From Streptomyces sp. NRRL S-455 (lineage in GTDB: Bacteria > Actinomycetota > Actinomycetes > Streptomycetales > Streptomycetaceae), in contig NZ_JOCT01000011.1 in NCBI RefSeq assembly GCF_000717875.1, positions 434,001 to 498,000 of the forward strand: DNA of 64,000 nt. Direction: 5' to 3'. The translations under genes and the position numbers were made by a program. Each line of letters opens with the position of its first letter. The stretch's first letter is position 1. The notes under the pieces were generated by a model. That model was not told where the DNA came from. It saw only the letters and a list, made by a program, of their open reading frames with translations, and made no database searches. Below are positions 1-17,333 of the stretch, one piece after another.

Positions 1-1
1 C

Positions 2-397
2 AACCTTGACCCGTTCGAAGAGGCCGTTTCGCTCAGCGAGGCTGCCGGGGGCCGGATCACGTCTTGGGTTACCGGCGCTGCCACTGCCCTTGAGATTGCG
101 AAGCTCAAGGATGCGACCGGTTCCAACAAGGCGCTTCTAAACCCGGACCTGACCGCTGATGGTCGGCGTACCATTCTTGGCCGCCCGATCATCGTCAGCC
201 CGCACGTTCCGGCGGATGTGGTCTACGGAATCAGCAAGGACGATTTCCTTGTGGTCACCCGTGAGGACACGCGCCTTGACGTTGACCGTTCGGCTTACTT
301 CTCGTCTGACCGTGTGGGCGTGCGAGGCACCATGCGGGTTGCTTTCGGCATGCCTGTTGCTGGTGCTCACGTCCGCATCACGAATGCTTCGTCGTAA
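2..397 (+). CDS. Phage major capsid protein, HK97 fold (C-terminal part)
   Basis: The frame is open from the window edge and encodes the last 131 residues. It resembles the C-terminus of HK97-family capsid proteins (Phage_capsid): a segment on local sequence placement ending in NPDL, then LGRPIIVSPHVP, then a P-domain-like stretch with 'ISKDDFLVVTREDTRLDV', an aromatic 'SAYFSSDRVGVRGTMRVAF' strand and a short hydrophobic end. Such proteins build the icosahedral head shell. The N-terminal delta domain and any upstream protease or portal genes are off-window. A strong terminator hairpin follows 20 bases after the stop, so this gene seems to end its transcription unit, which is unusual for a tailed phage where connector and tail genes normally follow. 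Confidence 0.8.
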   Translation, partial: NLDPFEEAVSLSEAAGGRITSWVTGAATALEIAKLKDATGSNKALLNPDLTADGRRTILGRPIIVSPHVPADVVYGISKDDFLVVTREDTRLDVDRSAYFSSDRVGVRGTMRVAFGMPVAGAHVRITNASS

Positions 398-416
398 TGG
401 CGTAGCCACCTGATCT

Positions 417-469
417 AGCCCGGTCTCTCCTTTCCCCGCTGGGGTTCGTGTCGGAGGAGAGACCGGGCT
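417..469 (+). terminator. Intrinsic terminator after capsid gene
   Basis: Perfect 15-bp arms AGCCCGGTCTCTCCT (417-431) and AGGAGAGACCGGGCT (455-469) with a 23-base loop, directly downstream of the capsid stop and followed by ATTCCTGT. Confidence 0.8.
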
Positions 470-624
470 ATTCCTGTATCCATGGCCGTTCGCTCCTGCA
501 AGATCACACCCCGAGCCGGCGAAAATGGCCACATTCTCTGACCTGCCCTTATCTCGCACAGCGACGTTGCTACCCCCTGTGCTGGTGCTAACCCACCACA
601 TCCGGAAATCCGTAGGTGCCCCCT

Positions 625-1068
625 ATGCCATATCGCCCCCGGCGTCCCTGCCCTGTCGTACCCAACTGCCCTAACTCCATAGGCGGCAAGGAACGGGCCT
701 GCCCCGATCATGTGCACATGCTGACTGCCCGACGCGCTGAGAAGGGGACCAGCGCATACGGGAAGGATTGGCCGCGCAAGCGTGAGTCATTCCTTTACAC
801 GAATGCATGGTGTGTGTTGTGTGGTCAGCCTTCGAAGGTTGCCGACCATTACCCGCTGAGCCGCAAGGAGTTGGTTAAGCGTGGCGTCACTGATCCGAAC
901 GCGCATGAGCACCTAAGAGCCCTTTGTGTGCGCTGCCATAACCGTGAGACCGGCCGTAACCAGGCTGGTGGTGTAGTCGCTGAGAGGCGGAGACAGTCAC
1001 AGGCTCAGCGTGAATGGCAGCACTGGACAGAGAAGCGCGACGCTGAGGCCGAAGAGCCGCCGTTCTGA
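625..1068 (+). CDS. HNH endonuclease
   Basis: The 147-residue product has a zinc-finger-type HNH fold: WCVLCG (first CxxC), VADHYPLSRKE (the catalytic DH), and LRALCVRCHNRETG (second CxxC plus the final H). This is the arrangement of phage HNH nucleases that sit near terminase or head genes and assist DNA packaging or cleave DNA at cos-like sites. The ATG at 625 was preferred; a GTG at 616 in frame is possible. The C-terminal quarter is charged and probably flexible. It lies alone between the capsid terminator and a convergent membrane-protein gene. Its role in packaging here is an inference, because no terminase gene is visible. Confidence 0.85.
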   Translation: MPYRPRRPCPVVPNCPNSIGGKERACPDHVHMLTARRAEKGTSAYGKDWPRKRESFLYTNAWCVLCGQPSKVADHYPLSRKELVKRGVTDPNAHEHLRALCVRCHNRETGRNQAGGVVAERRRQSQAQREWQHWTEKRDAEAEEPPF

Positions 1069-1143
1069 TGCCTGCCCCTGGGGGGTGACCCCCTCCGGGC
1101 CTGACAGAAGCGCGGCAGGGAGGCAAAAAGTTGGCGCCGCAGC

Positions 1144-1902
1144 TTAAGGCGTTTGCGCGGTGTCGTTATCAGCGTCAGGAACTGCCCTAGACGCGTGCTC
1201 GCTGGCCTCGTCCATCTGTAGTTCAAGCTCATAGATTCGCGAAGTCACAATTCCCGACACTATGGCCTGGACGAGAATGGCGTTAGCATCCCGCAACGCA
1301 CGTAGGCCGTTGTCGTACAGAATTGCGGATGCTATGAGGCCAAAAAGGAACCATGGCGACCACGTCACAGCCGACACAATCCAGAGGCTGGCTGAAAATA
1401 AGGCCATGTTGAAGCGGAATTCAGCTTCCGAGTCGAGCCGATCATTTTCCAGGTAGACGTCTGCGTGACTCGCGGTCAGGCGCATACGGACTTCTGGAAA
1501 CTCTCCCATGATTGCCCTGGCTAATACGCTGACGGTTTCAACGTCGTCGTGCAACCCGCGCTCTTGTAGCGCTGTCATCGAGAATCTGGCTAGCTGCTTG
1601 AATTCCCCTGGCGTAACAGGCATAAATATCGAACGTCTGAAAAGGGCACCAATAAAGACAGCTTGCCCGGTCGTTAGCTTCAAAATGTCACCCAGGAGAT
1701 AAAGAGCGAAAGCAACGACCGCAGTTACAATGGGCTTCCCTGCTAGCTCTCCGAGCGAATATACGCGGCGCAAAACTCCATGCGCTTCGCCAGGCGAAGG
1801 TATTTCACCTCCGATTGCCAGCCAAATCTGAAACGCCAGCAACGCACCGACAGCGAACGGCGTGCGGAAATGGCGAAGCCCTGGAAGCAGACTTGTAAGC
1901 AT
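1144..1902 (-). CDS. Membrane protein of unknown function
   Basis: I do not recognise a family. The 252-residue product has hydrophobic stretches at about residues 15-32, 58-78 and 165-190, with a hydrophilic central part (about 80-160) and a polar, acidic C-terminus. The central part lies between helices two and three. The gene converges on the HNH gene and lies downstream of the XRE regulator, separated from it by a hairpin. Codon use is less GC-biased than in the chromosomal genes, in keeping with the element. A superinfection or membrane-acting accessory role is possible but nothing in the sequence shows it. Confidence 0.6.
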   Translation of the reverse strand: MLTSLLPGLRHFRTPFAVGALLAFQIWLAIGGEIPSPGEAHGVLRRVYSLGELAGKPIVTAVVAFALYLLGDILKLTTGQAVFIGALFRRSIFMPVTPGEFKQLARFSMTALQERGLHDDVETVSVLARAIMGEFPEVRMRLTASHADVYLENDRLDSEAEFRFNMALFSASLWIVSAVTWSPWFLFGLIASAILYDNGLRALRDANAILVQAIVSGIVTSRIYELELQMDEASEHASRAVPDADNDTAQTP

Positions 1903-1944
1903 GGTCCGAGGATTCCCTTCGTGAATGCGCCCTGTACGCGAGCC

Positions 1945-1986
1945 AGCCCCTTACTCGCTGCCTTTCCTGGCGGCTAGTGAGGGGCT
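1945..1986 (-). terminator. Hairpin downstream of the XRE regulator gene
   Basis: Arms AGCCCCT (1945-1951) and AGGGGCT (1980-1986), extended inward by a few more imperfect pairs, lie just past the regulator stop. There is no clear U-tract on either strand. Confidence 0.5.
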
Positions 1987-1996
1987 CTTCGTGGTT

Positions 1997-3205
1997 CTAG
2001 GCCGCCGGGTGCTCAGCGAGCAGGGCGGCCACTTCCGGCACTTCCGCATACTCCTGCAACCGGCCGAGGATGACCCGAACCCGTTCCGCCACCCTTTCTG
2101 ACGGTGTGTCAGCTCCTAGGGAAATGACCCGTTCGGCTACTGCGGCTGCCTCTTCTGGTTCGTTGGCATCGGCTAGCGCGACGGCAAGCCAAGACAGGTA
2201 CAGCGCTAGTTCCCGGGTATGCGTGGCGTCGTAGCCGCCGAGGACTTCCCGTAGCAACGGAACAGCGCGTAAGGGTCGGTGCAGCTCTGTGTAGACGCGG
2301 GATTCCATGATCCTGAGTTCGCCAGCGCTCACCCAATACAGGAACGCCGGGGATTCTGCCCCAGGGGTGTCTTCACTGAGCGCCTGCCCGGCTTCCCCCA
2401 GCGCCCTCATGGCCGGTTGCGCTTCACCGGCTTTCGTATGCGCCCACGCCACACGGTCCAGATACAGCGCACGGGCTTTCGGGGGAGCATCTGGGCCAGC
2501 GTCATTCAAGGCCGCTTGTGCCAGCGTCACACCTTCGCCTTCCCGCCCATTGTTGCTCATCTGGTAGGCGAGTGACCCGGCAATGTGCCCGGCAAGGGTG
2601 TGGTCTTCTGCCTGCCGTGCTGCACTGAGTCCTAGCCGGTAGATTCGCTCAGCTTCGTCATGTTGCCCGGCGTCACTGGCAATCCATCCTGCAATCTGCG
2701 CCAACTCCCCGATTTGCCGGAGGAGTTGTTTACCCACTTCGCTGGTGTAGGTGTTCTCTCGATAGACCTTGACCGCACGCCGGAGATCACGGAGGGCAGG
2801 GCGGATTAGGTCGCCACCAGCCAGCACGTCATCAGCCAGCCTGAGCCCGTGTACGCGCTGGCGTAGGTCATCCACGTCCCCCCTGCCAATACGCCGCCCT
2901 GTGCGGTCACTCAGAGGCTCTAGGGGGTCCTCGGCGGGCAGGAAGTCAGCGAGCGTCGGTAACGGAGGCTCAGGGGCCGTCAGGGGCGTTCTGAGCACAT
3001 CCATGGACACACCTAGGGCGGCGGCAATGGACGGCAGCCATTCGCGGGGAGTGCGCTTGCCTGTCTCCCATCGGCTGACTTCCTGCCGTCCGACCGGATC
3101 ACCCTGCACTCGTGCCGCCTTGCAGACCTCATGCGCTAGGCGTGCCTGACTCCAGCCGCGCTCTTCGCGTAGCCGTCTGATGTTGGCCCCGATGCTGCTG
3201 CCCAT
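1997..3205 (-). CDS. XRE-family regulator with TPR-like C-terminus
   Basis: The N-terminus is a Cro/CI-type helix-turn-helix: IGANIRRLREERGWSQARLAHEVC followed by RQEVSRWETGKRTP at residues 5-60. The remaining ~320 residues are alpha-helical with repeating Ala/Leu/Glu-rich pairs (for example around DEAERIYRLGLSAARQ and AEPAMRALGEAGQAL-like helices), the pattern of TPR-containing Streptomyces regulators. The ATG at 3205 was chosen because the helix-turn-helix starts right after it; an upstream extension to 3328 would be non-conserved. It is divergent from the small-gene operon at 3306, so it probably controls that operon and possibly the element. A peptide-sensing role is a family-based guess. 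Confidence 0.75.
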   Translation of the reverse strand: MGSSIGANIRRLREERGWSQARLAHEVCKAARVQGDPVGRQEVSRWETGKRTPREWLPSIAAALGVSMDVLRTPLTAPEPPLPTLADFLPAEDPLEPLSDRTGRRIGRGDVDDLRQRVHGLRLADDVLAGGDLIRPALRDLRRAVKVYRENTYTSEVGKQLLRQIGELAQIAGWIASDAGQHDEAERIYRLGLSAARQAEDHTLAGHIAGSLAYQMSNNGREGEGVTLAQAALNDAGPDAPPKARALYLDRVAWAHTKAGEAQPAMRALGEAGQALSEDTPGAESPAFLYWVSAGELRIMESRVYTELHRPLRAVPLLREVLGGYDATHTRELALYLSWLAVALADANEPEEAAAVAERVISLGADTPSERVAERVRVILGRLQEYAEVPEVAALLAEHPAA

Positions 3206-3305
3206 GCGTCCATTCTGGCCGACAGTTGGCCTACAGGGGGCCGCTAGTCGCTGATCAATACCCGAAGGAGTCTGGGACGCCGGACAGATGACGTGAGGGG
3301 ACGGC

Positions 3306-3485
3306 ATGGCAACGAGCACAGCGACCAACTCTGAGGCGGATTACGTGACCTACGCGCCTGATGGGTCTACGTGCGCCGACTGCAAGCGGAAGATCAAGCG
3401 GCTTGAGCCCTGCCGTCGGTCGACCATTGAGCAGAAGTCGAGTTCCGCCGTTGCCGTTTACCGGCATTTCGAGTGCCCCCGATGA
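3306..3485 (+). CDS. Small Cys-motif protein, 59 residues
   Basis: First of four tightly overlapping small genes in the element. The product has a CADC motif (residues 23-26), a third cysteine in LEPC and a fourth near the C-terminus (HFECPR), a possible zinc-ribbon layout. The ATG at 3306 lies 100 bases from the divergent regulator start. Its stop overlaps the next ATG as ATGA, indicating translational coupling. I recognise no family. Confidence 0.6.
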   Translation: MATSTATNSEADYVTYAPDGSTCADCKRKIKRLEPCRRSTIEQKSSSAVAVYRHFECPR

Positions 3486-3718
3486 CGGCACCAGCAAAGC
3501 GCACCAGTGTCCGTGTGAGCGCCTTACCGGCCCCAGAGCTAGTCAGTCTCATGGACGACCCGGCAGGGCCATACGCGGGCTCTCCTGACGGCTGGTGGAC
3601 GACGTACGGAGGGGCCTTGGACTCAGCTTCCGGCGTTGTGTACTTCCCGCCTGCCGCTGACCTTCCCGCGTGCCCTTTCCCGTGTTCTGCCTGCCGTGCC
3701 AAAGGGAGGCAGGGTTGA
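3482..3718 (+). CDS. Small unknown protein with C-terminal Cys cluster, 78 residues
   Basis: The ATG at 3482 overlaps the previous stop (ATGA). The middle is rich in Gly, Trp, Tyr and Pro (GSPDGWWTTYGGALD). The C-terminus carries ACPFPCSAC, a CxxxCxxC cluster that could bind metal. The next gene starts inside the stop codon. Function unknown. Confidence 0.6.
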   Translation: MTAPAKRTSVRVSALPAPELVSLMDDPAGPYAGSPDGWWTTYGGALDSASGVVYFPPAADLPACPFPCSACRAKGRQG

Positions 3719-3921
3719 AAGACATTGACCGCTGGTTGCGGGAACCCCGAAGTGGGCCGGTTGACCCTGAAAGGTGTGTGGTGTGCGCGTCCCTCCGGGG
3801 CAGTGTCCGGGCTGCCGCCCGCAACATGGATTTGCCGTCAGTTGCGGCGACAGTGGCGGCCATGGAAGTACACAAGGAATTCGCACATCAGAACCGGGTG
3901 AAGGAGTCTCAGCCCGTATGA
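3715..3921 (+). CDS. Small unknown protein with TTG start, 68 residues
   Basis: I chose a TTG at 3715 because it overlaps the preceding stop (TTGA) and has a strong ribosome-binding site, GGGAGG, 6 bases upstream. The product starts with an acidic/aromatic helix, has one CVVC motif (about residues 21-24), then an Ala-rich helix. An upstream in-frame ATG at 3670 would overlap the previous gene much more. Function unknown. Confidence 0.55.
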   Translation: MKDIDRWLREPRSGPVDPERCVVCASLRGSVRAAARNMDLPSVAATVAAMEVHKEFAHQNRVKESQPV

Positions 3922-4010
3922 GTCCGTTACGTCGCGCGCTGGCTGTGGCTGCATGGCTCGCATGGGTGGCCGTTGTGGCGCTCATAGTTGCCCGGGGAAT
4001 AGCAACCTAG
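3918..4010 (+). CDS. 30-residue single-helix membrane miniprotein
   Basis: ATG at 3918 overlaps the previous stop (ATGA). The peptide has a basic start (MSPLRRAL) followed by one hydrophobic helix (AVAAWLAWVAVVALIVA) and a short tail. AAGGAG lies upstream. It is the last gene of the four-gene operon; a terminator follows 40 bases later. Coupling to upstream genes supports translation. Function unknown. Confidence 0.5.
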   Translation: MSPLRRALAVAAWLAWVAVVALIVARGIAT

Positions 4011-4050
4011 GTTCCTCACTGTCGGCACAGCACCCTGGCAGTGAGGTTAA

Positions 4051-4094
4051 GGACTCCGTCCGTGCGTCTTCCGCGTGGCGTACGGACGGAGTCC
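4051..4094. terminator. Terminator between convergent element genes
   Basis: Perfect 13-bp arms GGACTCCGTCCGT (4051-4063) and ACGGACGGAGTCC (4082-4094). It lies between the end of the plus-strand small operon and the end of the minus-strand gene at 4105, so it may serve both. Confidence 0.75.
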
Positions 4095-4104
4095 GTTGCT
4101 GTTC

Positions 4105-4425
4105 TCAGTGCTGGCCCAGAACGGAACGCAAGGCGTCTTCCAGTGCCCTTGCAGCCGGATTGTTAAGCCGTTCCCCGCGTAGCTCCGCGACTTCGGCCAC
4201 GTCCTTTACAGCGCCAGCCAACTTCGCCACCAGGGCGCACAGTTCCTCGCGTGTGGCTTCCGGCCGCTGGGACATAGTCAGCGCGTACGCAGCATCGTTG
4301 CGCGCCGTGCTGATGATGTGGGTTTCCGTCCGGTCTGCGATTACGTCCACGCCTTCCCCTGGTGCCGCGTACTCCGCGCTGCCTCCGGGGCCGGTCCATG
4401 GCAGGCGACGCATAGACTCACTCAT
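4105..4425 (-). CDS. Unknown 106-residue protein next to the element boundary
   Basis: The product is soluble with a mixed N-terminal half (AEYAAPGEGVDVIADRTETHIIST) and a helical C-terminal half with hydrophobic heptads (EELCALVAKLAGAVKDVAEVAEL). The ATG at 4425 is the first in frame. It is the last gene before the junction with comEC. Its position next to the attachment site would suit an excisionase-like protein, but I see no helix-turn-helix, so I leave it unnamed. Confidence 0.5.
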   Translation of the reverse strand: MSESMRRLPWTGPGGSAEYAAPGEGVDVIADRTETHIISTARNDAAYALTMSQRPEATREELCALVAKLAGAVKDVAEVAELRGERLNNPAARALEDALRSVLGQH

Positions 4426-4599
4426 GCCGACTCCATCCAGTCGGTAAGCCCCGGTGCGGAAGCTCTCACCCTTCCCGCCGGGGCACTGTTGTTACGCGCT
4501 CAGGCTACGTCGCAGCACCCTTCTGAAGGCACCCAACTCCCGGTATTCGGGCCGTACTTCCATCAATTCGTTATCGCGCTGACCAGGGCAGACGTGGTA

Positions 4600-4640
4600 G
4601 AACTACTAGTCCCGACCCTTCGGGTTGTCCTCACCGCAGG
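4600..4640. other. Probable attachment site (element/comEC junction)
   Basis: ComEC coding sequence matches the family up to the codons for GEDNP (minus strand ending near 4622) and is then replaced by KGRD and a stop at 4606-4608. The junction includes a small palindrome GTAGAACTAC (4597-4606 region). The crossover core is probably within CCCGACCCTTCGGGTTGTCC. The site on the left side is outside the window, so the exact core cannot be fixed. Confidence 0.55.
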
Positions 4641-7080
4641 AGATGAGGGCCAGCCGCGGGTCCGCCCGGCGCATCAGGCCGGGGTCCTGGTAGGCCGAGC
4701 CGTGGTGGGCGACCTTCAGCACGTCCACGCTCTGCAGCGCTCCGGCCGCCGGCGATCGGGCCAGCGCCCGCTGGGCCGGGGGTTCCAGGTCCCCGAGGAG
4801 CAGCAGACGCAGTCCGGCCGAGCGGACCAGCATGGCGACACTGGCGTCGTTCGGCCCCTCCGGCTCCTGGTGTGCCGGGAGCACGTGTGGATGCGCGCCC
4901 GGTGGAGCGTTCGGGGGCGGGCTCGCCGGCACGCTCGGGGGCGGCCACACCACTTGCCAGGACAGTTCCCCCGTGCGCCGCCGGTCCCCGGCGGCGGCCC
5001 GTGTCACGGGGACCCGCCGGGCCGCCGCCTGTCTTCGGACGAACGCGGCCTGGTCGGCGGGCTCTTCGAAGCCGGTGGTCTCGATCGCGCCCACGGCCCG
5101 CCCGCGCAGCACACCGGGCAGCCCCGCCACGTGATCGGCGTGGAAGTGGGTGAGCACGACCAGCGGGACTCTGGTGATGCCGAGGGAGCGCAGGCAGTGG
5201 TCGACGAGCTGCGGATCGGGCCCCGCGTCCACCACCACACCGGCGCCCTCGCCCGCCGCGAGCACCATGGCGTCGCCCTGCCCCACGTCGCACATCACCA
5301 GCCGCCAGCCCGGCGGCGGCCAGCCCGTGATCACCCGGGTCAGCGGTGGCGGCTGCACCACGGCCAGCGTCAGCAGGAGCACGGACACCCCGCACCACCA
5401 GGGGTGCCGGAGCAGCCGTCGTCCCACGAGCAGCACGATCAGGGTCACGGCCGCGAGGAGCGCCGCACCCGCCCAGCTGCCCGGCCAGTCCACTCCCGCG
5501 CCCGGCAGCGCCGCCCCCGTGCGGGCGACCGTCGCGAGCCACTCGGCGGGCCAGTGCGCGCACCACGCCATCGCCTTGGCCACCGGCATCCCGACCGGTG
5601 CGGCGGCCAGCGCCGCGAAGCCCAGAACCGTGGCCGGCGCGATCGCGAATTCCGCGATCAGGTTGCACGGCACCGCCACCAGGCTCACCCGCGCCGACAG
5701 CACGGCGACGATCGGCGCGCACAGGGCCTGCGCGGCGGCGGCCGCGCCCAGCGCCTCGGCGAGCCGTGGCGGCACGCCGCGCCGCCGGAGCCCGGCGCTC
5801 CAGCGCGGGGCGAGGGTCAGCAGGGCGCCGGTGGCCACCACGGAGAGCAGAAACCCGTAGCTCCGCGCCAGCCACGGGTCGTACAGCACCAGCAGCAGGA
5901 CCGCCGTCGCCAGCGCCGGGATCAGTGATCTGCGGCGGCCGGTCGCCAGGGCGAGCAGCGCGACGGCTCCGCAGGCAGCGGCCCGCAGCACGCTGGGGTC
6001 CGGTCTGCACACGACGACGAACCCCAGTGAGAGCACGCCCCCGAGCACCGCGGTGGCCCGCAGGGAGATTCCGAGGCGCGGTGCGAGGCCCCGCCGCTCG
6101 GCGTGCTGTGCCAGGCCGGGCGGCCCGAGCAGCAGGGCGAGCAGGATCGTGAAGTTCGCCCCGGACACGGCCAGCGTGTGGGTGAGGTCGGTCTCCCGGA
6201 AAGCCTGCTCCAGTTCCGGGGTGATCCGCGAGGTGTCCCCCACGACGAGCCCCGGCAGCAGTGCCCGGGCGTCCGCCGGCAGACCGTCGGTCGCCTCCCG
6301 CAGCCCGGTCCGCAGCCGCCCGGCGAGGCGCTGTGCGTCCGACGGCTCCCCCACGACCTCCGGTTCGGTCTCGCCCCTCACGCGCAGCACGGCGGCGACC
6401 CGGTCATCGCCCGTCATCGCGGGCGCCAGCCGCGCGCTGACCCGCAGCCGCGTCGACGGCAGCAGCGCGAGCCACGGCGAGCGCACGGTCTCATCGGCGG
6501 CAGGTCGCCCGCCTCCGCCGTCCCGCCCGGGTGATCCAACGTCGACGATCATCAGTACGGGCGTCCGCGTCCGCTCCGTCGGGCCCCCCGTCTCGTGGAC
6601 GCGCCGCACATCGGCACGGATCAGTACGGCGGTGGGAGCGACGTGAGCGCCCCGGACCCTTGGCCGGGTGAGCCGGGGATCGGAGGTGAGCTCGACCTCG
6701 GCGGCCACGGTCGCGTACCCCCGCGCCAGGCCGGGCACGGTCCCTCGCCGCAGGTCCGCCCCGTGCAGCCCGGCCGAGGCGGCGGCCGCGGAGACGGAGA
6801 GCAGCACGGCGGCGGCCGACGCCCGCGACCAGGACGCCCACCCTGCCCGCCGGGCCAGCGGCAGCAGACCGACCGCGGCCAGGCATCCGGCCACGATGCC
6901 CACGACCCATCCCGGTGGCGCGTCCAGCACCAGCGCTGCGGTGCCCCAGGCCGCCAGGGCCGGTGGGACCAGCCGCAGGTCCGTGGGGCCCTCCTGTCGC
7001 GGGCGGGCGGTGCCGAGCCGTGTCCCCGAGGAGGCGTGTACGGCTGACCGGGTGGGTGCGTGCTCAGGCGCGCCGCTCAT
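4606..7080 (-). CDS. comEC: ComEC/Rec2 DNA-uptake channel, C-terminus truncated
   Basis: Inner-membrane channel that passes single-stranded DNA in transformation. The 824-residue frame has N-terminal helices, the OB/DUF4131-like region, the Competence domain (TLAVSGANFTILLALLLG near residue 300 and following helices), and a C-terminal metallo-beta-lactamase-like domain with DVGQGDAMVL, THFHADH, GDLEPPAQ and KVAHHGS. Family members continue after ISCGEDNP with YGHP and 30-50 more residues; here it reads KGRD-stop. The missing part contains a conserved His, so nuclease-like activity is probably lost or altered. The ATG overlaps the comEA stop (ATGA). The truncation coincides with the junction to the phage-like element. 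Confidence 0.9.
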   Translation of the reverse strand: MSGAPEHAPTRSAVHASSGTRLGTARPRQEGPTDLRLVPPALAAWGTAALVLDAPPGWVVGIVAGCLAAVGLLPLARRAGWASWSRASAAAVLLSVSAAAASAGLHGADLRRGTVPGLARGYATVAAEVELTSDPRLTRPRVRGAHVAPTAVLIRADVRRVHETGGPTERTRTPVLMIVDVGSPGRDGGGGRPAADETVRSPWLALLPSTRLRVSARLAPAMTGDDRVAAVLRVRGETEPEVVGEPSDAQRLAGRLRTGLREATDGLPADARALLPGLVVGDTSRITPELEQAFRETDLTHTLAVSGANFTILLALLLGPPGLAQHAERRGLAPRLGISLRATAVLGGVLSLGFVVVCRPDPSVLRAAACGAVALLALATGRRRSLIPALATAVLLLVLYDPWLARSYGFLLSVVATGALLTLAPRWSAGLRRRGVPPRLAEALGAAAAAQALCAPIVAVLSARVSLVAVPCNLIAEFAIAPATVLGFAALAAAPVGMPVAKAMAWCAHWPAEWLATVARTGAALPGAGVDWPGSWAGAALLAAVTLIVLLVGRRLLRHPWWCGVSVLLLTLAVVQPPPLTRVITGWPPPGWRLVMCDVGQGDAMVLAAGEGAGVVVDAGPDPQLVDHCLRSLGITRVPLVVLTHFHADHVAGLPGVLRGRAVGAIETTGFEEPADQAAFVRRQAAARRVPVTRAAAGDRRRTGELSWQVVWPPPSVPASPPPNAPPGAHPHVLPAHQEPEGPNDASVAMLVRSAGLRLLLLGDLEPPAQRALARSPAAGALQSVDVLKVAHHGSAYQDPGLMRRADPRLALISCGEDNPKGRD

Positions 7081-8159
7081 GGCCGTACGAGATTCCGCAG
7101 GTCGGCGAAGCGGCGGTCGCCGATGCCGTTCACCTCGCGCAGCTCGTCCACGGAACGGAACCCGCCGTGCTGCGTGCGGTAGTCGATGATGTGCTGCGCG
7201 AGCACGGGACCGACACCGGGCAAGGTGTCGAGCTGGTCGGCGGTGGCGGTGTTGAGGGAGACCGGGGCGGCGCGGCCGGCGCCGCCCGCCGCGCCGCCGG
7301 CCGTGCCTCCGGGGGCTGTGCCGCCGGCCCCCGTGCCCGCGGCGGGAGCCGGTGCCCCGACGATCACCTGCTCACCGTCCACGAGGAAGCGGGCGCGGTT
7401 GAGGCCGTCGGTGTTCGTGCCGGGCTTCACCCCGCCCGCCGCGCGCAGGGCGTCCGTCACACGGGAGCCGGCCGGGAGCCGGTGGACCCCGGGTTCCCGG
7501 ACCTTGCCGCCCACGTCCACGACGATCTCGGCCGTCGCTGTCGCACCCGCCGCCTTCGCCGCCCCGGCGGGTGCCCCCGGTCCCCGCTCCTCCGCGGCCG
7601 GCCCGGTCTGCCCCCGCTCCTCCTCGTACGGTACGGCCGCTCGAACCACCTCGGGTGGTCGCACGGACTGGGTCCGCCCGGCCCAGAAGTGCTGCACGGC
7701 GAACAGGGCGGCGACGCAGAGCACCACGGTCAGCGCGAGCACGCTCCGGCGCTCCAGGCCGCACCTCGCCTGCAACCACAGCGGCATGCGCTCCCGCAGT
7801 GCGAGTCCGGCCCGCCCCCGCCAGGCGCCAGCGGCGGTGCGGCCGTCCCCGCCGTCGGCCGCGGCGTCCGTCCCGCCGTCCGTCCCGGCCCGGGACGGGA
7901 CGGGCCCGGCCACGTCGGCGTGTCGCTCCCCGCCCGGCGGGCCATGGCCCGACTCCCGCCGTTCCCCGGCGGGTTCGGCATGCCCGCCGAACAGCACCTG
8001 TGCGCGTCGCCGGAATTCCTCCGCCGAGGCATCACGGTGCCGCGCCCGGCCCCGTGCGGCAGGCCGGTGACGGCGGTGCCGGACTCGGCCGTCGGACGCC
8101 GGTCCACGGCCCGGGCCGCTGGTCGCAGTCGCTGTGCGTGAACGTGATCGAAGTGCCAT
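7077..8159 (-). CDS. comEA: ComEA-like DNA-binding protein
   Basis: A 360-residue protein with an Arg-rich cytoplasmic N-terminus, one transmembrane helix (SVLALTVVLCVAALFAV, about residue 150), an SLBB/beta-grasp domain (EIVVDVGGKVREPGVHRLPAGSRV...), a Gly/Ala linker and a C-terminal double helix-hairpin-helix (LNTATADQLDTLPGVGPVLA, VDELREVNGIGDRRFADLR). ComEA binds double-stranded DNA outside the membrane and passes it to ComEC. It starts at ATG 8159, and its stop overlaps the comEC start. The long basic N-terminal extension is typical of Streptomyces rather than Bacillus forms. Competence has not been shown for most streptomycetes, so its actual role is open. Confidence 0.9.
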   Translation of the reverse strand: MALRSRSRTATATSGPGRGPASDGRVRHRRHRPAARGRARHRDASAEEFRRRAQVLFGGHAEPAGERRESGHGPPGGERHADVAGPVPSRAGTDGGTDAAADGGDGRTAAGAWRGRAGLALRERMPLWLQARCGLERRSVLALTVVLCVAALFAVQHFWAGRTQSVRPPEVVRAAVPYEEERGQTGPAAEERGPGAPAGAAKAAGATATAEIVVDVGGKVREPGVHRLPAGSRVTDALRAAGGVKPGTNTDGLNRARFLVDGEQVIVGAPAPAAGTGAGGTAPGGTAGGAAGGAGRAAPVSLNTATADQLDTLPGVGPVLAQHIIDYRTQHGGFRSVDELREVNGIGDRRFADLRNLVRP

Positions 8160-8279
8160 GCGACGAGGATCGGTCACATCGGCACAGTCGCGATGATCTT
8201 GTTCAATTCCCGGGGACAACGCCCCACTTGTGGATAACTCACCCACCCGCACGGGTGAGCGGAACCCACGGTGACCCGT

Positions 8280-16460: not shown

Positions 16461-16470
16461 TCATCTTCTG

Positions 16471-16543
16471 TGGAGCTAAGGAGAATTGAACTCCTGACCT
16501 CCTGCATGCCATGCAGGCGCTCTACCAACTGAGCTATAGCCCC
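16471..16543 (-). tRNA. tRNA-Ala (anticodon GGC), copy 1
   Basis: 73 bases on the minus strand. Acceptor GGGGCTA/TAGCTCC with discriminator A, D arm GCTC-AGTTGGTA-GAGC, anticodon stem CCTGC/GCAGG with loop ATGGCAT (anticodon GGC, reads GCC), and T arm AGGAG-TTCAATT-CTCCT. CCA is not encoded. It is identical to copy 2 at 17261. Confidence 0.97.
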
Positions 16544-17253: not shown

Positions 17254-17260
17254 CTTGACG

Positions 17261-17333
17261 TGGAGCTAAGGAGAATTGAACTCCTGACCTCCTGCATGCC
17301 ATGCAGGCGCTCTACCAACTGAGCTATAGCCCC
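17261..17333 (-). tRNA. tRNA-Ala (anticodon GGC), copy 2
   Basis: Identical over all 73 bases to the copy at 16471, with the same flanking base on each side, but with a different terminator. It lies between the histidine phosphatase gene and the zinc-ribbon operon. Confidence 0.97.

What the first reader, a model, noticed from the sequence alone, without database searches (positions are those of the whole stretch)
4400..4700. comEC split by an integrated element
The ComEC frame matches the family through ISCGEDNP and is then replaced by KGRD and a stop, next to a lower-GC phage-like region. The lost part includes the conserved (Y)GHP motif and the last strand and helix of the metallo-beta-lactamase domain. 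This resembles Listeria, where a prophage sits in comK and excision restores competence. In a streptomycete, a DNA-uptake gene that could be switched by excision would be new to me.
Basis: partly seen in the sequence, partly recalled or inferred. Interest (0 to 1): 0.7.

Follow-up and report, generated by a model that had tools for sequence, protein, structure and literature searches.

The report
Small phage-satellite-like element splits comEC
A 9.4-kilobase phage-related element has inserted itself precisely into the DNA-uptake gene comEC of a Streptomyces; related small elements sit at the same codon in four other Streptomyces species, and a full-size prophage with a related integration system lies elsewhere in the same genome.

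Summary
comEC (window 4606-7080, minus) is intact to ...ISCGEDN, then reads PKGRD-stop. The missing 43 codons lie 9,388 bp away, 4.77 kb left of the window, beside the usual neighbour gene. Joined at a shared GTT, the pieces read one intact comEC. The insert is not a 40-kb prophage but a small element: large serine integrase at one end, a conserved 106-aa gene at the other; capsid, scaffold-like and HNH genes and an NsdA-like regulator between. Four other Streptomyces species carry 9.1-10.6 kb relatives at the same codon, with differing cargo. Sister elements occur as apparently circular 9.0 and 9.5 kb IMG/VR contigs. The integrase/106-aa module also occurs in 41-kb temperate phages (Vashvirus) and in a Vashvirus-like prophage elsewhere in this genome. 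That prophage holds the genome's only detected Gp3-type directionality factor; none was detected in six small elements. Best reading: a phage-satellite-like element that breaks comEC when integrated, its excision probably gated by a helper phage's directionality factor. A physiological competence switch like Listeria comK is possible but unshown; to my knowledge natural competence is not established in Streptomyces.

The parts
1..4623 (.). Right half of the integrated element (whole element G000:C11:429236-438623, 9,388 bp core to core; the other 4,765 bp lie left of the window)
   Evidence: Junctions located by comparison with relatives; GC 0.616 against 0.695 and 0.724 in the flanks
4592..4656 (+). 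attR: element P arm (4592-4623), 3-bp core GTT (4624-4626), comEC B arm (4627-4656)
   Evidence: reconstructed attP arms form an imperfect dyad scoring above the maximum of 500 shuffles in 5 of 5 elements
4624..7080 (-). comEC 5' part, 819 codons to the Asn (AAC) of GEDN; the open frame continues to 4606 through five element-encoded codons PKGRD and a stop
7077..8252 (-). comEA-like gene (SLBB and helix-hairpin-helix), upstream of comEC in the same direction
   Evidence: Pfam HHH_3 6.3e-20, SLBB 4.2e-9
4105..4425 (-). 106-aa protein (s106) beside the attachment site; homologues beside it in the other 4 comEC elements, in G305 and in phages Euratis, Vash and Samora; function unknown
   Evidence: AlphaFold2 model mean pLDDT 72.6, three helices; no Pfam, PHROG or NCBIfam match
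1997..3328 (-). HTH + TPR regulator of the NsdA-like family (true start probably downstream of the listed TTG)
   Evidence: NCBIfam NF053720 6.2e-76; Pfam HTH_31 5.6e-10; phrog_10886 7.3e-53
1144..1902 (-). 252-aa protein, hydrophobic stretches by eye, no family match
616..1068 (+). HNH endonuclease, 95% identical to one in the comEC element of G048; weak match also to a PHROG labelled terminase small subunit (2.2e-5)
   Evidence: phrog_589 2.4e-15
2..397 (+). 3' part of the HK97-type major capsid protein gene (whole gene G000:C11:433561-434397)
   Evidence: Pfam Phage_capsid 1.8e-28 for the whole gene; phrog_10 1.1e-31
3306..3921 (+). Three small overlapping ORFs (3306-3485, 3473-3718, 3670-3921), unassigned
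   Evidence: the last two scanned with Pfam only, no match; the first not scanned

Best explanation
A capsid-encoding, phage-satellite-like element of 9,388 bp integrated by its own large serine integrase at the Asn codon of the GEDN-(T/P)YGHP motif of comEC. While integrated it cuts off the last 43 residues of ComEC (last part of the metallo-beta-lactamase domain with YGHP), supplies a stop after five codons, and separates comEC from its downstream gene, so ComEC nuclease function, and any transformation that depends on it, is predicted to be lost. Excision would rejoin comEC exactly. Large serine integrases need a directionality factor to excise (general knowledge), and no Gp3-like one was detected in the element, so excision is inferred to be triggered mainly by a related temperate phage, such as the Vashvirus-like prophage in the same genome, whose integrase is of the same family and which carries a Gp3-like factor. 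Shown by sequence: split gene, junctions, in-frame join, recurrence, shared integration module, resident prophage. Inferred: loss of function, mobility, helper dependence, helper-gated excision.
For: Missing 3' piece beside the N-acetyltransferase neighbour, with 94.9% identity over 8 kb to S. djakartensis. In-frame empty-site join in 5 of 5 comEC elements. Integrase: Resolvase, Recombinase and Zn_ribbon domains, phrog_95 4.6e-82. The integrase lies beside a comEC tail in 5 of the 30 integrase loci returned and examined, i.e. in at least 5 of 392 Streptomyces genomes; sizes 9,388, 9,106, 10,567, 10,123 and 9,383 bp. s106 beside the comEC 5' piece in 5 of 5. The 8 strong s106 hits (E<1e-25, of matches in 109 of 392 genomes) each pair with this integrase clade: 6 at 6.9-8.3 kb and 2 at 39.7-40.5 kb apart, i.e. 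satellite and phage sizes; weaker s106 matches were not examined. The C12 prophage of this genome matches 32 of the 39 Euratis proteins tried (of 58 CDS), with terminase, portal, capsid, tail, lysin, RDF (82%), integrase (87%) and s106 (91%). Gp3-like RDF: 1 in G000, in that prophage; 1 in G263 on another contig, 21 kb from a related integrase; 0 found in G101, G048, G207 and G305. No gp27 homologue in 6 of 6 small elements (tblastn E<=1e-3). Apparently circular 9.0 and 9.5 kb sisters with s106-attP-int joined, capsid and small-terminase-like genes. G263's element has small-terminase-like and capsid-like fragments. Nearest capsid relatives among phage records: 10.9-11.1 kb Mycolicibacterium aichiense records (31-32%).
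Against: No reads, no excision, particle or transfer data. Not all family members encode a recognised capsid: G101 has a primase-like gene, G048 a methyltransferase and regulator, G207 a regulator and a methyltransferase look-alike by eye, so 'capsid-encoding' fits G000, weakly G263 (2.6e-5, at the Pfam cut-off), and the two circles. In the G000 element no small terminase was recognised beyond a weak match of the HNH protein (2.2e-5). Gp3-like RDFs are only one kind; s106 or the 69-aa ORF after int could be the RDF, which would make excision helper-independent. Of the 5 comEC-element carriers, 3 have no Gp3-like RDF in their assemblies, and in the 4 other than G000 no close Vashvirus-type large terminase was found, only 33-42% partial matches in G048 and G263, so a resident helper is not required for maintenance. 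The resident prophage's capsid is not a detectable relative of the element's. The two circles have a GATC attP centre, so no free form of the comEC type itself was found.
Confidence: 0.72

Rival explanations
1. Decayed prophage: a former 40-kb Vashvirus-like prophage in comEC that lost most of its genome and is now stuck; comEC is a fixed pseudogene.
For: No terminase large subunit, portal, tail or lysis gene recognised in the G000 element. In G101 the comEC 5' part is broken by a frame change and a TAG, as expected of a gene no longer maintained (or of assembly error). G263 has a second insertion in comEC.
Against: Five comEC elements fall in a narrow size range with int and s106 kept at the two ends and different middles; their integrase frames have no stops; 9.0 and 9.5 kb apparently circular sisters exist; the truncated comEC of G000, G048 and G207 has dN/dS within the 5-95% range of intact pairs, though G000 and G048 near its top.
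Confidence: 0.15
2. Regulated competence switch (active lysogeny, like the Listeria comK prophage or SpyCIM1 in mutL): the element excises under a host signal and restores ComEC-dependent DNA uptake without killing the cell.
For: Precise in-frame restoration; comEC sequence still constrained; precedent for an island as a gene switch, SpyCIM1 (PMC4689407, start of abstract in a search listing; PMC3430984, abstract).
Against: No excision data; no Gp3-like RDF detected in the element; in-frame restoration is automatic for any site-specific integrase; comEC/comEA deletion had no effect on L-form DNA uptake and walled Kitasatospora cells showed no uptake (PMC9500057, passages); found in only 5 of 392 genomes.
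Confidence: 0.1
3. Anti-curing insertion: the comEC site is favoured because breaking DNA uptake protects the element from removal by transformation, as proposed for streptococcal, Listeria and other competence-gene insertions.
For: Five species at one comEC codon; a different 10.5-kb insertion in comEC of G263 and a further interruption in G056; general hypothesis and examples in PMC4774983 (passages) and PMC12637031 (passages).
Against: Near integrase relatives sit in ada/alkA and in a glyoxalase-type gene, not competence genes; the integrase tree shows comEC users closely related rather than convergent from afar; transformation is not established in Streptomyces (recalled).
Confidence: 0.15
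4. Assembly artefact: the element was joined to comEC wrongly.
For: G000 is a 120-contig draft.
Against: Both junctions lie inside one 520-kb contig and are reproduced at the same codon in four other genomes, two of them on contigs of 9.3 and 9.9 Mb (G101, G207).
Confidence: 0.01

Closest known systems
SpyCI / SpyCIM1 chromosomal islands in mutL of Streptococcus pyogenes (PMC4689407, PMC3430984; abstracts)
   Same: Small phage-like island in a conserved host gene; excision restores the gene
   Different: There excision with growth state is measured and the site is the 5' end of mutL; here the 3' end of comEC, a large serine integrase, and no excision data
Streptococcus pyogenes prophages Phi1207.3 and Phi10394.4 in comEC (PMC4260502, passages)
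   Same: Phage integrated in the comEC coding sequence; Phi1207.3 has serine-family resolvases
   Different: 52-59 kb prophages, GA target dinucleotide, paired resolvases in Phi1207.3, in Firmicutes; here a 9.4-kb element with one large serine integrase in an actinomycete
Listeria comK prophage (A118 type recalled; comK insertion mentioned in PMC4774983, passages)
   Same: Integrated element splits a competence gene; serine integrase (recalled)
   Different: Full phage with demonstrated regulated excision (recalled); here a satellite-like element and a structural uptake gene
Capsid-forming PICIs and Streptomyces satellites MulchRoom and MiniFlayer (PMC10690885, passages)
   Same: Small satellites that bring their own capsid gene and HNH genes
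   Different: Those encode terminase, portal and connectors; in the G000 element only capsid and scaffold-like head genes were recognised. Mulch/Flayer use virulent helpers and MulchRoom a tyrosine integrase
Mycolicibacterium aichiense 10.9-11.1 kb phage records (GenBank OR387110-OR387121; gene table of Alyssa1 seen)
   Same: Similar size; nearest capsid protein (31-32%); Alyssa1 has a serine integrase and an HTH gene
   Different: Alyssa1 also has terminase, head-tail and tape measure genes; their integrase matches are under 60% identity
Streptomyces phages Euratis and Vash (Vashvirus), Samora and Lilbooboo (about 41 kb)
   Same: Integrase 64-66% identical; s106 54-56% in the three examined, same order around attP
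   Different: Full-size phages with head, tail and lysis genes; the Vashvirus-like prophage of G000 sits in ada/alkA (G057's at matching flanks) and both carry a Gp3-like RDF

Membership tests
Large serine integrase element | Resolvase + Recombinase + zinc-ribbon domains | tested here: met
   Pfam PF00239, PF07508, PF13408
Large serine integrase element | Short identical core at attL/attR, attP with imperfect dyad, precise rejoining of the host gene | tested here: met
   GTT core and in-frame join in 5 of 5; gapped dyad score above 500 shuffles in 5 of 5
Capsid-forming PICI | Own major capsid gene | tested here: met
   PF05065 1.8e-28
Capsid-forming PICI | Own terminase subunits, portal, protease, connectors | tested here: not met
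   None recognised in the ten ORFs scanned (only a 2.2e-5 match of the HNH protein to a terminase-small PHROG) nor by tblastn with 39 of 58 Euratis proteins; definition as in PMC10690885 (passages). Not filed as a cf-PICI
Phage satellite (general) | Small integrating element lacking the virion genes needed to propagate alone | tested here: met
   9,388 bp; no terminase large subunit, portal, tail or lysis gene recognised
Phage satellite (general) | Mobilised by a helper phage | not testable with these tools
   Only indirect: shared integration module and resident Vashvirus-like prophage
Vashvirus-like prophage | Terminase, portal, capsid and tail genes of the genus | tested here: not met
   Only int and s106 of 39 Euratis proteins match in the C11 element; the C12 prophage matches 32 of 39
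Gene switch by excision (active lysogeny) | Regulated excision restoring the gene in living cells | not testable with these tools
   Restoration on paper only

The most novel reading that the evidence does not exclude
A helper-gated comEC: the satellite-like element lacks a directionality factor of its own, and the Gp3-like factor of a Vashvirus-like prophage or infecting phage acts on its integrase, so that comEC is rejoined only when that phage is active, linking phage induction to a DNA-uptake gene in a genus in which natural competence is unproven.
Probability: 0.22. Interest if true: 0.78.

Novelty: new variant of a known kind. Interest (0 to 1): 0.56.

Why it matters
It gives five natural comEC disruptions with junctions that would rejoin in frame, in a genus where a comEC-type domain was found in 144 of 150 genomes but whose use of it is, to my knowledge, unknown. 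Comparing occupied, excised and empty states would test directly what ComEC does in Streptomyces. It also pairs a small capsid-encoding element with a full-size phage of the same integration family in one genome, offering a tractable satellite-helper system and a case of serine integrases shared, with change of target, between phages and satellites.

Tried and rejected
An ordinary full prophage was rejected on size and content. Natural absence of the comEC 3' end in relatives was rejected (79 of 80 intact, 1 contig end). In the 150-genome sample 144 had a match; among the rows listed, G000, G101 and G048 stop at residues 202-205 of the 252-residue query, i.e. at the site, and the list was cut, so this is no full count. 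G056 stops earlier (residue 190): its comEC breaks off within the AHHGS motif into other sequence, so at least one loss has another cause. G119 was checked and keeps YGHP.

Judging by dN/dS was inconclusive: G000 0.206 against nearest intact L008 (61 control pairs at dS 0.1-0.3: median 0.154, 5-95% 0.101-0.212); G207 0.153 (242 pairs at dS 0.3-0.45: median 0.191, 0.134-0.252); G048 0.212 (17 pairs at dS 0.8-1.2: median 0.175, 0.132-0.216). G101 and G263 were not included.

A viral-contig scan with the capsid protein found no relative, and the element's DNA matches only short stretches of three phage records. One clade for comEC-targeting integrases was not recovered: three label changes by parsimony, at least two forced; G263's integrase groups with the Vashvirus ones at 100/98 support, the other four with the 40-kb contig's at only 88/93. 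The YGHP histidine as a metal ligand was not confirmed: the ComEC paper's tested residues H725 and S728 fall, by my counting on the PDB sequence, in the HHGS motif, which the truncated protein keeps. No fold search was run with the s106 model. An ungapped dyad count was weak (12 of 28 in four elements, 20 of 28 in one); the gapped comparison replaced it.
Full report
The window is G000:C11:434001-498000 of an 8.23-Mb draft genome. comEC relatives put it in Streptomyces; the best matches kept include S. djakartensis and S. violaceus at 88%. The ComEC query finds one place in the genome. The ComEC frame ends ISCGEDNPKGRD*. Pfam shows the competence domain and a metallo-beta-lactamase domain cut short.

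The other end. Taking 95 kb of the contig, C11:345001-440000, and searching with the tails of three intact relatives found the missing piece at C11:429107-429238. It is followed by the arylamine N-acetyltransferase gene (PF00797 1e-68), within 8 kb of DNA 94.9% identical to S. djakartensis downstream of its comEC. The two junctions share a GTT (AAC, the Asn codon of GEDN) and lie 9,388 bp apart. Joining them gives ...ISCGEDNTYGHPAPGTVDALRAGG...RVARD-stop, 819 + 43 codons. The element's right junction is at window 4624-4626.

What the element holds (window coordinate = L002 coordinate minus 14000). A large serine integrase beginning about 40 bp from the left core (L002 9280-10980); a 69-aa ORF; a phrog_4160 protein (unknown function, HNH-like by eye); a scaffold-like protein (phrog_4708 7.8e-9); an HK97-type major capsid protein; an HNH endonuclease; a 252-aa protein without family match; an NsdA-like HTH/TPR regulator; small ORFs; and the 106-aa s106 gene by the right end. 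No large terminase, portal, tail or lysis gene was recognised in the ten ORFs scanned or with 39 of 58 Euratis proteins. Reconstructed attP arms are an imperfect inverted repeat in 5 of 5 comEC elements, each scoring above the maximum of 500 shuffles.

Recurrence. The integrase was searched in 392 Streptomyces genomes: 84 had a match at E <= 1e-30, and loci were returned for 30. All 30 loci were examined. In five (G000, G101, G048, G207, G263) the integrase adjoins a comEC tail; the other matches' flanks were not examined, so five is a minimum. All five are inserted at the same codon, are 9,106-10,567 bp, have s106 at the comEC 5' end, and would rejoin comEC in frame. Their middles differ: a D5-type primase in G101; a methyltransferase and HTH regulator in G048, and look-alikes in G207 (regulator 66% identical to Euratis gp52; methyltransferase by eye); HNH, a capsid match at the cut-off and a small-terminase-like fragment in G263. 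A sixth relative, G305, lies between two glyoxalase-domain pieces and so apparently splits such a gene instead.

Link to full phages. Among 50,697 phage records the closest integrases, 64-66%, are those of the 41-kb Streptomyces phages Euratis, Samora, Vash and Lilbooboo. The three examined carry an s106 homologue just across attP. s106 was searched in 392 genomes: 109 had a match at E <= 1e-5, and eight hits were strong (E < 1e-25). These eight each pair with this integrase clade, six at 6.9-8.3 kb and two at 39.7-40.5 kb; weaker hits were not examined. One of the long pairs is in G000 itself, on contig C12: a Euratis-like prophage matching 32 of 39 Euratis proteins tried, in an ada/alkA gene. 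It has an 82% match to Euratis gp27, a Gp3-like recombination directionality factor (PF18897 1.3e-16). A search with that family finds one copy in G000, in this prophage; one in G263, on a contig with a related integrase and a 33% terminase match; one in G057; and none in G101, G048, G207 and G305. None of the six small elements has a gp27 homologue. Against a resident helper in every carrier: no close Vashvirus-type terminase was found in G101, G048, G207, G263 or G305.

Free forms. Four IMG/VR contigs carry relatives of the integrase. One of 9,014 bp has an exact 127-bp terminal repeat; one of 9,540 bp has a 126-bp repeat that reaches its right end and starts 11 bases in from its left. Both look like circular molecules, and hold s106-attP-int joined, a capsid gene (3e-23 and 1.5e-17) and a small-terminase-like gene (1.2e-15 and 9.7e-15). 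Their attP centre reads GATC, like the G305 type, so they are sisters of the comEC type and not the same. A 40-kb contig has an integrase 80% identical to ours, with another attP centre.

The integrase tree (27 rows) places four comEC integrases and the 40-kb contig's together (88/93), and G263's with the Vashvirus ones (100/98). comEC targeting is therefore either ancestral to both with later target changes, or arose more than once.

Function. [quoted passage not shown] pneumophila and, less strongly, B. subtilis (PMC12455585, section 21 and passages). The element removes the end of that domain, with YGHP, but leaves the region with the HHGS motif. Loss of activity is inferred. Whether Streptomyces uses ComEC for DNA uptake is open; the nearest experiment seen is in Kitasatospora L-forms (PMC9500057, passages).

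In print. Searches of open-licence PMC papers: serine integrase + comEC + Streptomyces, 0; prophage + comEC + integrated, 62, of which 20 listings were seen, none on Streptomyces by title; Streptomyces + prophage + comEC, 8, none on this by title or start of abstract; phage satellite + competence gene + natural transformation, 1, not on this by the start of its abstract; Vashvirus, 1 taxonomy paper; satellite + Mycolicibacterium aichiense + phage, 0. Subscription papers are not covered. Elements in competence genes generally, including comEC in streptococci, are known (PMC4774983, PMC12637031, PMC4260502, passages).

Verdict. A real, recurrent, precise insertion of a small satellite-like element in Streptomyces comEC. 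The competence-switch idea remains a hypothesis; helper-gated excision is the version that best fits the gene content.

Noticed in passing
G000:C12 about 157,500-200,200 (loci L141-L143): Vashvirus-like prophage (32 of 39 Euratis proteins matched) splitting an ada/alkA DNA-repair gene in the same genome; a similar one in G057 (L144-L146) with matching flanks.
   Followed up: partly
L134:1321-11842 (G263): A second, different insertion of about 10.5 kb in the same comEC, at about residue 646, with TGTCTCATGAGA near both ends; six ORFs scanned with Pfam gave one match (DUF6551), five scanned with NCBIfam none.
   Followed up: partly
L152 (G056:C4:134000-136500): comEC breaks off within AHHGS, before the element's site, into other sequence; cause not determined.
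   Followed up: partly
L150 and L151 (IMG/VR contigs): Apparently circular 9.0 and 9.5 kb elements with integrase, capsid and small-terminase-like genes: free relatives of the window element.
   Followed up: partly
L130:10836-13327 (G101): comEC 5' part carries a frame change and an in-frame TAG, a sign of decay after insertion or of assembly error.
   Followed up: no
window 16470-16543 and 17260-17333: Two tRNA-Ala (ggc) genes on the minus strand, 0.8 kb apart.
   Followed up: no
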